A DNA stretch of 64,000 bases from the NCBI GenBank assembly GCA_948144175.1, contig CANXME010000795.1:1148524-1212523 (forward strand). The letters are read 5' to 3'. The first letter of the stretch is position 1; each line of letters begins with the position of its first letter. The notes under the pieces were generated by a model. That model was not told where the DNA came from and ran no database searches. It worked only from the letters and a program-made list of their open reading frames with translations. Positions 13,001-63,800 of this stretch are shown here, piece by piece. The position numbers were made by a program, and so were the translations under genes. The stretch comes from Closterium sp. NIES-65. Lineage: Eukaryota > Streptophyta > Zygnematophyceae > Desmidiales > Closteriaceae.

Positions 13001-15324
13001 CTGAGCTCTCCCAGCTGCAGCTCTCCCAGCTGCAGCTCTCCCAGCTCAGCTCTCCCAGCTCAGCTCTCCCAGCTGCAGCTCTCCCAGCTGCAGCTCTCCC
13101 AGCTCAGCTCTCCCAGCTCAGATCTCCCAGCTGCAGCTCTCCCAGCTGCAGCTCTCCCAGCTGCAGCTCTCCCAGCTGCAGCTCTCCCAGCTGCAGCTCT
13201 CCCAGCTCAGCTCTCCCAGCTCAGCTCTCCCAGCTGCAGCTCTCCCAGCTGCAGCTCTCCCAGCTGAGCTCTCCCAGCTGCAGCACTCCCAGCTGCAGCT
13301 CTCCCAGCTGCAGCTCTCCCAGCTCAGATCTCCCAGCTGCAGCTCTCCCAGCTGCAGCTCTCCCAGCTGCAGCTCTCCCAGCTCAGCTCTCCCAGCTCAG
13401 CTCTCCCAGCTTCAGCTCTCCCAGCTTCAGCTCGCCCGCCCAGAGCTCCCCTACCCCCGCTTCCTTCCACCCGTATCCTTCTCTCGCCCCCTCCCTTCAC
13501 CCCAAATCTCCCCCCAACCTACCTTGGCAATGGCAACAGCCTCGTCCAGCCCCGGCGGTGGCGTATCCAGCAGCTCTCCCAGCTTCAGCTCGCTCAGCTG
13601 CAGACAGCAAATCGGCGGAGAGAGCGGGAGGCAGGAGAGGAGGAAAAGATTTCTGTTGACTAAAACGATCCACGAGGGGAAGGGGGAAAAGAAGAGGAAG
13701 GGTGAGAGAATGCAATGGTGTGGCATTGCGATGGGGATCCAAAGCTGTCCAGATCACGCACCTGGTCAACCCAGCCGCCCAGCCCCACGGAGTCCATGAA
13801 GTCCTTCATGCCCTTGCCGCCATCCTCCATCCACCCACGCCACCATATAAGATAGCTTCACATGGTTATCCGCGTTATAGAGTGCATAGCATTCACAACA
13901 CGAACCTGGTCCACCCAGCCGCCCAGCCCCACGGAGTCCATGAAGTCCTTCACGCCCTTGCCGCCATCCTTCCCTGTTGCTGTCCGAAACTCCTCCCGCG
14001 CCTGCTCTGGGTCGATCTGTTGCCACAAAAATAGATGGGCGTGGGGGTCGGAGTCAGAGATGTTGTGGAGTCAGATGGAATGAGAAGTTGCTGGTGTAAG
14101 GAGGAAGGAAAAAGTGTCATGGCCAGAGGAACAGGGAATGCGTGTTGCACATGCCCCATGCAGGTCAACATGTCTCATCCCCAGATAAAAGTGTTGTTTT
14201 GAGACGTCTCAAAACAACACTTTTATCACGTGTGGCACATGCCCCGTGCAGGTCAACATGTCTCCTCCCCAGATCCTCCCCTTATAATCGCACCCTCCAT
14301 TTGCTCTCACCTCCATGGCGAACAGAGGCAGGTCGGTGCCCTCCACAGCCACAGGCTTCCCTCCTGACACGTCCTGGTATGGTGAAGCAGGAGGGTGGGG
14401 GAGAGTCAGAGTGGGGAAAGTAAGAAAGGAGAGTCAGAGTGGGGAAAGAAAGAAAGGAGAGTCAGACCCAACAAAGGCAAAGGTCGGTTTCCCTCCACAG
14501 CCACAGGCTTCCCTCCTGACACGTCCTGGTATGGTAAAGCGGGAGGGTGGGGGGAGATGGGGAACGGTCAGGTTTAGGGACAACAGCAGGTCAGCCACCG
14601 GCGAGCGACAAACACTGATCCCCACCGGCAAACACCTGAAATGTACCTGAGCCCCACCTGACAGACACCTGAGTCTCACCTGGGCGAATTAGTCGCCGAG
14701 GGAGTGTGCAGGGTCGATGGAACCCACCAGCGTGCGATGGCCCTCGTTGGCGAACTTCACTGCCAGAGCCACCGACACACGCTCGTCTTCCATCCTAACC
14801 TGAAAGCACACACCTCACAGGCGCCTGAGACCAACCTGGGCGAAGGAGTCGCTGAGAGAATGCGCGGGGTCGGTGGAAACCACCAGCGTGCGATGGCCCT
14901 CGTTGGCGACCTTCACTGCCAGAGCCACCGACACACGCTGTTCTTCCATCCTATCCTGAAAGCACGCGCCGGCCGTTGCATCCTAGAGTCCCACCTGGGC
15001 GAAGGAGTCGCTGAGGGAGTGCGCGGGGTCAGTGGAAACGACCAGCGTGCGATGACCCTCGTTGGCGAACTTCACTGCCAGAGCGGCGGAAACGCTCGTC
15101 TTCCCCACACCGCCCTTCCCCCCAACCATGTAGTACTTCCGCGTCCTCCCCGCCACCATCTCGTCGAATCCAGATGACGCGGACGCTGTTGCCGTAAAAG
15201 CGCGCAAGGAGGCGGAGGGAGGGGGAACGGAGGTTACGGTGAGGAGAGAATAGGGAGGAACGGGAGGGGGTGGTGGAGGAACGGTGAAAGGAAAAATGGG
15301 AATGAAACACGTGATAGTTAACAC
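10008..15324 (-). CDS. GET3B: GET3/ArsA-type ATPase, chloroplast (GET3B) type
   Basis: Nine phase-consistent exons (given high to low): 15324-14995, 14373-14311, 14016-13906, 13597-13523, 12259-12191, 11889-11824, 11276-11199, 10936-10703 and 10145-10008, giving about 387 residues. The protein has a Pro/Ser/Thr-rich presequence of about 55 residues, then [15 protein letters not shown] (deviant Walker A), [12 protein letters not shown] (switch I), FDTAPTGHTLRLL (switch II), the zinc-binding CKFC near the end, and a C-terminus [17 protein letters not shown]3 proteins are dimeric ATPases that capture tail-anchored membrane proteins; the plant GET3B branch acts in the chloroplast stroma. The presequence fits that branch but is not proof. 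Introns hold many partial exon copies (listed separately), and every intact exon keeps a good GT/AG pair. The first Met is the only one in frame upstream of the ATPase core, but a start further 5' in another exon is possible. Confidence 0.9.
10146..10570 (-). repeat. three extra partial copies of GET3B last exon
   Basis: The acceptor side of the last exon (splice site plus codons for [17 protein letters not shown]) recurs with exon starts at about 10567, 10432 and 10282, before the complete copy at 10145. Spacing is 135-150 bp. The copies lose similarity after about 70 bp, contain stops, and none leads into the C-terminal codons. Only the final copy can complete the protein. Confidence 0.85.
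11200..11650 (-). repeat. extra partial copies of GET3B exon 7 with a palindrome
   Basis: The exon 7 start (acceptor plus [12 protein letters not shown]) is repeated with starts near 11634, 11516 and 11399; the intact exon starts at 11276. Spacing is 117-123 bp. Between the last two copies lies an imperfect palindrome, TTTTGAGACACCTCAAAA (11334-11351), of the family described in the findings. A partner palindrome AGTCGACTC/GAGTCAACT lies downstream at about 11037-11056. Confidence 0.8.
12126..12170. repeat. GGGGAT hexanucleotide microsatellite
   Basis: About seven units of GGGGAT/GGGAAT lie in the intron just downstream of GET3B exon 5. The run is in non-coding sequence and creates Met-Gly and Ile-Pro open frames that are not genes. 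Confidence 0.85.
12400..12560 (-). repeat. 25-bp tandem repeat and inverted copy from GET3B exon 5 start
   Basis: The exon 5 beginning (VVQFMQ, read on minus) is copied upstream of the real exon. Three 25-bp units of the type GCATGAACTGGATAATAAGG, each followed by CGCCT, occupy about 12463-12540. An inverted pair containing CAGTTCATGCAACTTCAG spans about 12403-12475, so the segment can fold on itself. None of the copies continues into the rest of the exon. Confidence 0.75.
12620..13600 (-). repeat. GET3B exon 4 copies and derived 15-bp minisatellite
   Basis: The intact exon 4 is 13597-13523. Its donor half ([20 protein letters not shown] plus GT) is present twice more, near 12830-12770 and 12690-12625. 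Between about 12818 and 13435 lies a long array of 15-bp units (CTCCCAGCTGCAGCT with variants), which on the minus strand reads as repeated LGELQ and clearly grew from the exon words AGCTGAAGCTGGGAGAGCTG. About 40 units are present. The array lies downstream of the functional donor, so it should be spliced out. The long plus-strand open frames here are shadows. Confidence 0.85.
13767..13823 (-). repeat. partial copy of GET3B exon 3 (donor half)
   Basis: On the minus strand the codons for [21 protein letters not shown] plus a GT donor are repeated about 140 bp downstream of the intact exon 3 (14016-13906). The intact exon is the upstream one, as expected for a donor-side duplication. Confidence 0.85.
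14141..14274. repeat. palindrome flanked by 46-bp direct repeat
   Basis: A perfect 44-bp palindrome (14184-14227) with central TTTTGAGACGTCTCAAAA sits between two 46-bp direct copies (14141-14186 and 14229-14274) that differ at three positions. It lies in the GET3B intron between exons 2 and 3. See the finding on palindrome-centred duplications. Confidence 0.92.
14480..14545 (-). repeat. partial copy of GET3B exon 2 (acceptor side)
   Basis: The beginning of exon 2 (acceptor CCAG followed by [12 protein letters not shown]) occurs once upstream of the intact exon at 14373-14311, about 165 bp away. The copy breaks off after about 45 coding bases. The functional copy is again the one that keeps the rest of the exon. 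Confidence 0.8.
14675..14980 (-). repeat. two partial copies of GET3B exon 1 (donor side)
   Basis: The 3' part of exon 1 ([30 protein letters not shown] plus donor) recurs twice downstream of the intact exon, with donors near 14835 and 14678 against the true donor at 14994. Spacing is about 155-160 bp. The copies lack the Walker A codons, and the last one carries a stop (SLGD*FAQ). Confidence 0.88.

Positions 15325-63800: not shown

What the first reader, a model, noticed from the sequence alone, without database searches (positions are those of the whole stretch)
14141..63364. Palindromes with a conserved TTTTGAGRCGYCTCAAAA core sit between direct duplications at many loci
Seen directly: at about nine loci (11334, 14184, 41017, 41116/41135, 56977, 60627, 61556/61600, 62333 and 63294; a degenerate one at 41370) a short palindrome with core GAGACGTCTC or GAGGCGCCTC separates two or three direct copies of the local sequence. 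Direct copies are 25-80 bp or more and are host sequence (intron or exon), so they differ from site to site. The outer arms of the palindrome (5-13 bp each side) are also locus-specific, yet pair perfectly or nearly so. Two palindromes (14184 and 62333) are both 44 bp and both start GATAA. This is not the form of a usual MITE, whose sequence is constant and whose target duplication is 2-11 bp. Possible readings: a tiny mobile palindrome with very long target duplication; a hairpin made during repair that copies arms and target; or a programmed junction. I know of no described element with a fixed core, variable arms and long flanking duplications.
Basis: seen in the sequence. Interest (0 to 1): 0.92.

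Follow-up and report, generated by a model that had tools for sequence, protein, structure and literature searches.

The report
Tiny palindromes flanked by long duplications
The nuclear genome of a green alga carries tens of thousands of tiny mirror-image DNA inserts, many sitting between two copies of the local sequence, which looks like a very small mobile element of a kind I could not match to any known one.

Summary
The window lies in an 874-Mb Closterium genome (probably strain NIES-65). The half-sites TTTTGAG and CTCAAAA, exactly 4 bp apart, occur 30,327 times; the reversed pattern 4 times. The centre is usually palindromic: TCGA 13,080, RCGY 11,264, AATT too in sampled loci. Of 52 isolated cores, 19 lie flush between two direct copies of local sequence, against 11 of 1000 random places. 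Clean copies are 16-98 bp, median 34. One event has an empty counterpart: a distant paralogue holds one copy of the 60-bp target, which includes an exon end, and no palindrome. Arms are not simply locus-specific; they recur as families. Best reading: a very small mobile palindrome inserted at a long-staggered double nick, so that fill-in duplicates the target. I suggest, less firmly, that both ends are tailed from one short template and join through the self-complementary centre. It failed at least one defining test for MITEs, SINEs/LINEs, mitochondrial GC clusters and bacterial long-duplication inserts. The enzyme is unknown.

The parts
11334..11351 (.). degenerate core TTTTGAGACACCTCAAAA between diverged copies 11236-11285 and 11360-11408
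14141..14186 (.). left copy of duplicated target (46 bp)
14187..14228 (.). palindromic insert, ACGT class, long arms (full palindrome 14184-14227)
14229..14274 (.). right copy of duplicated target (46 bp, 93% to the left copy)
40940..41016 (.). first of three copies of host sequence
41019..41036 (.). GCGC-class core
41116..41152 (.). two GCGC-class cores almost head to tail (41116 and 41135)
41154..41226 (.). last copy of host sequence
41370..41478 (.). insert that by eye holds several decayed AATT-like palindromic units, between two diverged copies of host sequence (81%)
   Evidence: the unit structure is read by eye
56990..57007 (.). ACGT-class core with unequal arms; copies 56939-56972 and 57042-57075
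60628..60645 (.). decayed ACGT-class core between about 148-bp copies (60479-60626 / 60646-60805, 80%) that contain a splice-donor-like motif
61532..61642 (.). array of three host copies separated by two GCGC-class cores (61557, 61601), period 44
62234..62332 (.). left copy of duplicated target (99 bp)
62333..62376 (.). 44-bp palindrome, ACGT class; its last base is also the first base of the right copy
62376..62474 (.). right copy of duplicated target
63258..63293 (.). left copy of duplicated target (36 bp)
63294..63328 (.). palindromic insert, GCGC class with long arms
63329..63364 (.). right copy, 36 of 36 identical

Best explanation
These are insertions of a very small non-autonomous mobile palindrome in the nuclear genome. 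One event makes both the palindrome and the flanking duplication. Shown: inserts lie flush between direct copies; for one event a distant paralogue has the single-copy state without palindrome; palindrome decay and duplication divergence rise together. Inferred: an unknown enzyme nicks the two strands tens of bases apart, the insert is placed at the break, and fill-in of the long overhangs duplicates the target. Further inferred, with less confidence: the two 3' ends pair by one to a few bases with a short template bearing arm plus TTTTGAGNN, are copied to its end, and the two identical tails join through their self-complementary tips. That would give a conserved centre, arms that match each other, arms of unequal length ending at microhomology, and no larger element. 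The [target + palindrome] unit may then expand as a tandem array.
For: 30,327 half-site pairs at 4-bp spacing, reversed control 4. In 327.6 kb of held sequence 4-bp spacing is found 92 times (array copies included); other spacings occur once or twice or fit array periods (46, 41 and 57). Centre palindromic in 80 of 87 exact pairs (array copies included). Flush duplications 19 of 52 isolated cores vs 11 of 1000 random; 18 of 29 exact isolated cores vs 89 of 600 with gaps. Insert 17-53 bp, copies 16-98 bp. Departures of the core from consensus correlate with divergence of the duplication, Spearman -0.48, p 0.007, n 30. Empty counterpart: the L006 9299 event has two identical 60-bp copies; the distant paralogue L172 aligns without gaps over 76 bp (56 identical, 42 of the last 50), with one copy and no half-site in the 105 bp upstream that I held; the exon-side copy plus flank encodes a peptide whose four PDB matches, weak (E 0.028-0.64), are all cyclic-nucleotide-gated channels. 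Microhomology: in 16 of 18 testable events the first target base beside the shorter arm pairs with the longer arm, background 0.28. No excess of lone half-sites in the held loci: 48 outside palindromes vs 46.0 expected in all by a Markov model. Arm GAAAGAAGGAGTG found exactly only beside the core in the held loci.
Against: Only one empty counterpart was seen, in a distant paralogue read over 201 bp; near homeologs share the events as far as seen, so no polymorphic or young insertion was caught. 33 of 52 isolated cores have no clean ungapped duplication, and cores with three departures do no better than random (2 of 12 vs 89 of 600). No enzyme, RNA or DNA template was found. The genome is rich in local duplications, and early, looser controls hardly separated cores from random places. 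The two-tail step rests on 18 events and is not distinguished from capture of a ready-made palindrome. L036 position 1052 shows a similar hairpin with a 6-nt spacer that this model does not predict.
Confidence: 0.6

Rival explanations
1. Palindrome first: short palindromes insert by some ordinary route and then act as fragile sites, so that replication restarts upstream and copies the neighbouring sequence again.
For: Palindromes are known to stall replication (recalled). Arrays exist, 11 palindromes in a row in L024, and the background of local duplication in this genome is high.
Against: Needs both breakpoints of the duplication to fall at the two edges of the palindrome, and the second copy to lack a palindrome. 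Flush edges, co-ageing and junction microhomology fit a single event better.
Confidence: 0.2
2. Retroposition of a short hairpin RNA by a LINE-type reverse transcriptase (target-primed reverse transcription), which can give target duplications of variable length.
For: Variable duplication length and microhomology at junctions; some copies lack most of one arm (L013 5063, L022 4411, L015 4540).
Against: No fixed 3' tail or polarity was seen. The conserved part is the centre, not one end. A hairpin RNA needs an unpaired loop, whereas the centre is palindromic in 80 of 87 exact pairs.
Confidence: 0.15
3. Extreme internal deletion of a terminal-inverted-repeat DNA transposon (a minimal MITE).
For: Short, palindromic, high copy number; several copies in or near genes.
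Against: Outer ends are the variable part and the centre is fixed; duplications 16-98 bp and variable instead of fixed and short; lone half-sites not in excess in the small sample held.
Confidence: 0.05
4. Assembly or library artefact.
For: Palindromes can be sequencing artefacts in general (recalled).
Against: The window events 61557/61601 (read on three further contigs), 62346 and 63303 (each read on two) recur on homeologous contigs, with substitutions in or near them; many duplications are diverged; the published assemblies of the complex are from long reads (PMC10407611, section 7).
Confidence: 0.02

Closest known systems
Mitochondrial palindromic GC clusters of yeast (GC42, GC18)
   Same: Very short palindromic mobile sequences, many copies, merging of neighbouring units; flanked by direct repeats (PMC4478555, passages seen).
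   Different: Organellar; direct repeats AG or ACT in PMC4478555 against 16-98 bp here; constant named sequences instead of a fixed core with variable paired arms.
Double-hairpin elements of Allomyces mitochondria and palindromic microsatellites of Fusarium mitochondria
   Same: Optional short palindromes thought to be mobile (PMC7218506, passages seen).
   Different: Organellar; the word duplication does not occur in the main text of PMC7218506.
Insertion with long and variable target duplication of bacterial restriction-modification genes (Nobusato et al. 2000, cited in PMC3031569; only citing passages seen)
   Same: Long, variable target duplications flank the insert and may allow tandem amplification.
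   Different: Inserts are genes, in bacteria; no palindromic fixed core that I know of (recalled).
SINE/LINE target-primed insertion
   Same: Variable-length target duplications and microhomology (recalled).
   Different: Here no tail, no polarity and a symmetric insert.
MITEs and introners
   Same: Many short non-autonomous copies, often in genes; some introner families have 3-9 bp duplications and inverted repeats (PMC9860276, one passage seen).
   Different: Duplication length, conserved centre instead of conserved ends, smaller size; the word Closterium does not occur in the main text of PMC9860276.

Membership tests
MITE / terminal-inverted-repeat DNA transposon | Short target duplication of fixed length (2-11 bp) | tested here: not met
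   19 clean isolated events: 16-98 bp, median 34
MITE / terminal-inverted-repeat DNA transposon | Conserved outer termini | tested here: not met
   Consensus decays outward; only the centre and about 9 bp each side are nearly fixed
MITE / terminal-inverted-repeat DNA transposon | Longer relatives sharing the termini | tested here: inconclusive
   None seen: lone TTTTGAG 48 vs 46.0 expected in 267.6 kb, spacings other than 4 rare; but the sample is about 0.03% of the genome
SINE/LINE retroposon | Variable-length target duplication | tested here: met
SINE/LINE retroposon | Polar element with a conserved 3' end or tail | tested here: not met
   Insert is symmetric and no shared tail was seen in the output shown
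SINE/LINE retroposon | RNA intermediate | not testable with these tools
   No expression data; the Rfam scan of the window at gathering thresholds gave 0 matches
Mitochondrial GC cluster / double-hairpin element | Short palindromic mobile sequence | tested here: met
   mobility itself inferred, from one empty counterpart
Mitochondrial GC cluster / double-hairpin element | Organellar location | tested here: not met
   Cores lie on many contigs of an 874-Mb assembly, two of them 2.0 Mb long
Mitochondrial GC cluster / double-hairpin element | 2-3 bp direct repeats at the insertion | tested here: not met
   against PMC4478555
Introner | Insert itself spliced as a new intron | not tested
   No RNA data; an 18-54 bp insert is unlikely to be an intron
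Insertion with long target duplication (bacterial RM type) | Long variable target duplication | tested here: met
Insertion with long target duplication (bacterial RM type) | Insert carries a gene | tested here: not met
   Inserts 17-53 bp

The most novel reading that the evidence does not exclude
A new way for DNA to move and to duplicate its target. Both 3' ends of a long-staggered double nick are tailed from one short template, the identical tails dimerise through self-complementary tips, and fill-in leaves a palindrome of fixed centre between long direct copies. The process has struck a nuclear genome thousands of times, seeds tandem arrays, and sometimes copies exon ends with splice donors into introns.
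Probability: 0.3. Interest if true: 0.95.

Novelty: categorically new. Interest (0 to 1): 0.86.

Why it matters
If right, the smallest of these inserts are about 18 bp, which would put them among the smallest mobile sequences known, with target duplications far longer than those of ordinary transposons (both comparisons recalled, not surveyed). It would give a concrete source of short tandem duplications, arrays and duplicated splice donors in a relative of land plants. It also makes the origin of long target duplications testable in an alga with several sequenced strains, some of which mate. The novelty grade rests on a search of open-licence papers only.

Tried and rejected
Larger parent element: searched for the ACGT-class arm and for lone half-sites in held loci; none in excess. 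Viral origin: 11 viral contigs hold TTTTGAGNCGNCTCAAAA; 2 of 11 are palindromic and, by eye in the 60-bp flanks printed, none is duplicated, so chance. Known RNA families: 0 matches in the window at gathering thresholds. Early controls were poor because the genome is full of low-complexity and tandem tracts: random places scored median 19 but 87 at the 90th percentile, while the sites scored 46-155; only 5 of 75 exact cores passed the 95th percentile of random; adjacent duplication was 21 of 50 vs 78 of 1000 and any duplication 37 of 50 vs 392 of 1000 (the script stopped on a write error after printing). One search, with tighter edges and array copies included, gave 66 of 117 vs 60 of 600. Searches are the tests I rely on. 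A search for empty sites inside the held 264 kb (matches over 120 bp) found none. Near homeologs were not empty where seen. Splice-donor motifs in the duplicated target: 10 of 42 events, random mean 4.1, 2 of 400 sets as high; suggestive only, since the event list was typed by hand and cores lie near genes. In print: the string GAGACGTCTC gave 14 papers, none whose title or abstract start suggested this; Closterium with palindrom gave 13, none on nuclear palindromes by title; seven further searches gave the precedents cited. Intramolecular snap-back: rejected because it would leave an unpaired loop at the centre. A translation of the paralogue was in the wrong frame and is not used.
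Full report
What the window is. The window is the last 64 kb of contig C794 of an 874,075,685-base assembly in 2400 contigs. 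A copia-type reading frame of the window matches Closterium proteins in all 120 listed hits (1431 found), from several strains. The published Closterium peracerosum-strigosum-littorale complex has an NIES-65 assembly of 876 Mb (PMC10407611, section 7 read), so NIES-65 is likely; this was not proven, and the ribosomal RNA search did not complete. That section says that samples were haploid, that long reads were used, and that more than half of the shared ortholog groups are duplicated in NIES-65.

The observation. In 124 kb, the 64-kb window plus the adjoining 60 kb of the same contig, all perfect palindromes of 18 bp or more other than (AT)n belong to this family; the adjoining 60 kb has no core within two mismatches with a palindromic centre.

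Sampling. Twenty 10-kb loci (L005-L024) were taken at places listed for the RCGY pattern, three 1.2-kb loci and 60 kb of C794 later. So the ACGT and GCGC classes are over-represented by choice, and TCGA and AATT copies were met by chance. Counts from these loci include array copies unless 'isolated' or 'independent' is said.

The element. The general form is TTTTGAG-NNNN-CTCAAAA. Genome-wide there are 30,327 exact sites, against 4 for the reversed pattern. TTTTGAGTCGACTCAAAA has 13,080 and TTTTGAGRCGYCTCAAAA 11,264 (this includes the non-palindromic ACGC and GCGT), together 80% of all; the AATT count was not obtained. These counts include homeologous copies, so independent insertions are fewer. 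In held loci 80 of 87 exact half-site pairs have a palindromic centre, 32 GCGC, 23 TCGA, 20 ACGT, 4 AATT and 1 TGCA; 6% would be expected if the centre were free. Spacing is fixed: 92 pairs at 4 bp in 327.6 kb; spacings 46, 41 and 57 (13, 4 and 4 pairs) equal the array periods 42, 37 and 53 plus 4, and the rest occur once or twice. Lone half-sites are not in excess, 48 against 46.0 expected, so no longer element with these ends was seen in this small sample.

Arms. In 83 independent clusters pairing continues outside the core: 0.66, 0.54 and 0.51 at positions 10, 11 and 12 from the centre, against 0.33, 0.31 and 0.32 after shuffling. The arms are family sequences: GTG and A/G-rich outward to CACGTG for ACGT, GTGAC for TCGA, GTGnC for AATT, hardly any for GCGC. 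The arm GAAAGAAGGAGTG occurs exactly in three loci (L012, L013, L014) and with one change in L022, always beside the core; two other one-mismatch hits, in the window, lie away from any core. The TCGA and AATT palindromes of L010 match, arms included (28 bp at 100%, 31 bp at 97%), at C1705, a contig that also holds a 72% match to another part of the same query, so it may be a related region; its letters were not read.

The duplication. A strict test (ungapped, score 13 or more, edges within 8 bp of the palindrome or core) gives 19 of 52 isolated cores against 11 of 1000 random places. The 19 events have copies of 16-98 bp, median 34, and inserts of 17-53 bp. With gaps and a 12-bp tolerance it is 18 of 29 exact cores, 6 of 14 with one departure, 4 of 9 with two, 2 of 12 with three, and 89 of 600 random. 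Among the 30 cores with such a duplication, more decayed cores have more diverged copies (Spearman -0.48, p 0.007), which fits one event making both. A scan made without reference to the core found 210 local duplications with an insert, 54 of them flagged by the loose motif GAG-N4-CTC, a few of those by chance; in the part of the output that I could see, nearly all strongly palindromic inserts were this family, an exception being a low-complexity tract in L008.

Empty counterpart. At L006 9299 two identical 60-bp copies flank ACTTTTGAGTCGACTCAAAAGTC. Two near-identical homeologs, C1658 and C347 (99%), align through this site without a break, so they appear to share it; their letters were not read. 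A distant paralogue (C429; patches of 69-91% identity) was read over 201 bp: it aligns without gaps to the second copy and what follows (56 of 76 identical, 42 of the last 50), has one copy only, and no half-site in the 105 bp before it. The second copy plus its flank encodes NLVLYLMASKFVGGVWYILSVD, whose four PDB matches, weak at E 0.028 to 0.64 because the query is 22 residues, are all cyclic-nucleotide-gated channel chains; GTGAGT follows in both genes. So the single copy is most likely ancestral and the extra copy, carrying an exon end and a splice donor, derived. The array at L006 7990 could not be aligned to the paralogue.

Homeologs. The window region 61400-63600 has three homeologs. 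The 61557/61601 array was read in all three (C665, C1129, C1720), and the 62346 and 63303 events in two (C665, C1720); all keep the structures with a few substitutions in or near them. This makes an assembly artefact very unlikely and shows that these events predate the segmental duplications.

Junctions. In 18 events (from a typed list of 20: the 19 plus window 63303; two had equal arms) one arm is shorter. In 16 of 18 the first target base beside the shorter arm pairs with the longer arm; the same arm base pairs with bases 4-14 further out at 0.28; binomial tail 9.6e-5 with a chance level raised to 0.4375 to allow for maximal extension. Target ends therefore seem to anneal to the insert or its template.

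Mechanism. The long variable duplication points to two nicks tens of bases apart on opposite strands, then fill-in. A palindromic centre argues against one strand folding back on itself, since that leaves a loop. Two identical tails joined through self-complementary tips, or a double-stranded palindrome captured as such, both fit; I prefer the first because arm lengths on the two sides differ and end at microhomology, but this is inference. The nuclease, polymerase and template are unknown. Arrays (11 palindromes of period 42 in L024, 5 of 53 in L008) fit later expansion of the unit; one place has two different core classes in one nest (L006 4156 and 4215), so sites can be hit twice.

Comparison with the known. 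By the tests in the membership table it is not a MITE, a SINE or LINE copy, a mitochondrial GC cluster or a bacterial long-duplication insertion, though it shares single features with each; the introner test was not made. I found no description in the open-licence papers searched (listings only, plus passages or sections of five papers); subscription journals and repeat libraries were not searched.

Noticed in passing
window 32320-34815 (+), part of an open frame that runs to 36984: BRCA2-like gene piece with six matched BRC repeats (Pfam PF00634, E 9.9e-45).
   Followed up: no
window 16415-23868: Two similar copia-type retrotransposon frames in direct orientation, as read from the frame list (Closterium relatives).
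   Followed up: no
window 6930-7985 (+): DDE_1 superfamily transposase-like frame (Pfam, E 3.5e-16).
   Followed up: no
window about 61672-61988: A roughly 315-bp repeat beside the 61557 array with dozens of listed copies at 92-96% across the genome.
   Followed up: no
window 46375-46484: Inverted repeat, 38-nt arms 95% complementary, 34-nt spacer; not of the core family by sequence.
   Followed up: no
L036 1052: A flush duplication whose insert is a hairpin TTTGAGTCA-GCCATG-TGACTCAAA, that is, similar half-sites with a spacer in the centre.
   Followed up: no
L008 8185-8450: 24-bp satellite made of a decayed GCGC core plus a few bases, a possible end point of array expansion.
   Followed up: no
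L010 7611 and C1759: The TCGA palindrome at L010 7611 was not in the capped match list for the homeolog C1759 while four others were; a possible polymorphic site to check.
   Followed up: no
10 of 42 events, e.g. L006 9299, L018 4680, window 60628, 62346: The duplicated target contains a splice-donor-like motif more often than random segments (mean 4.1 of 42).
   Followed up: partly
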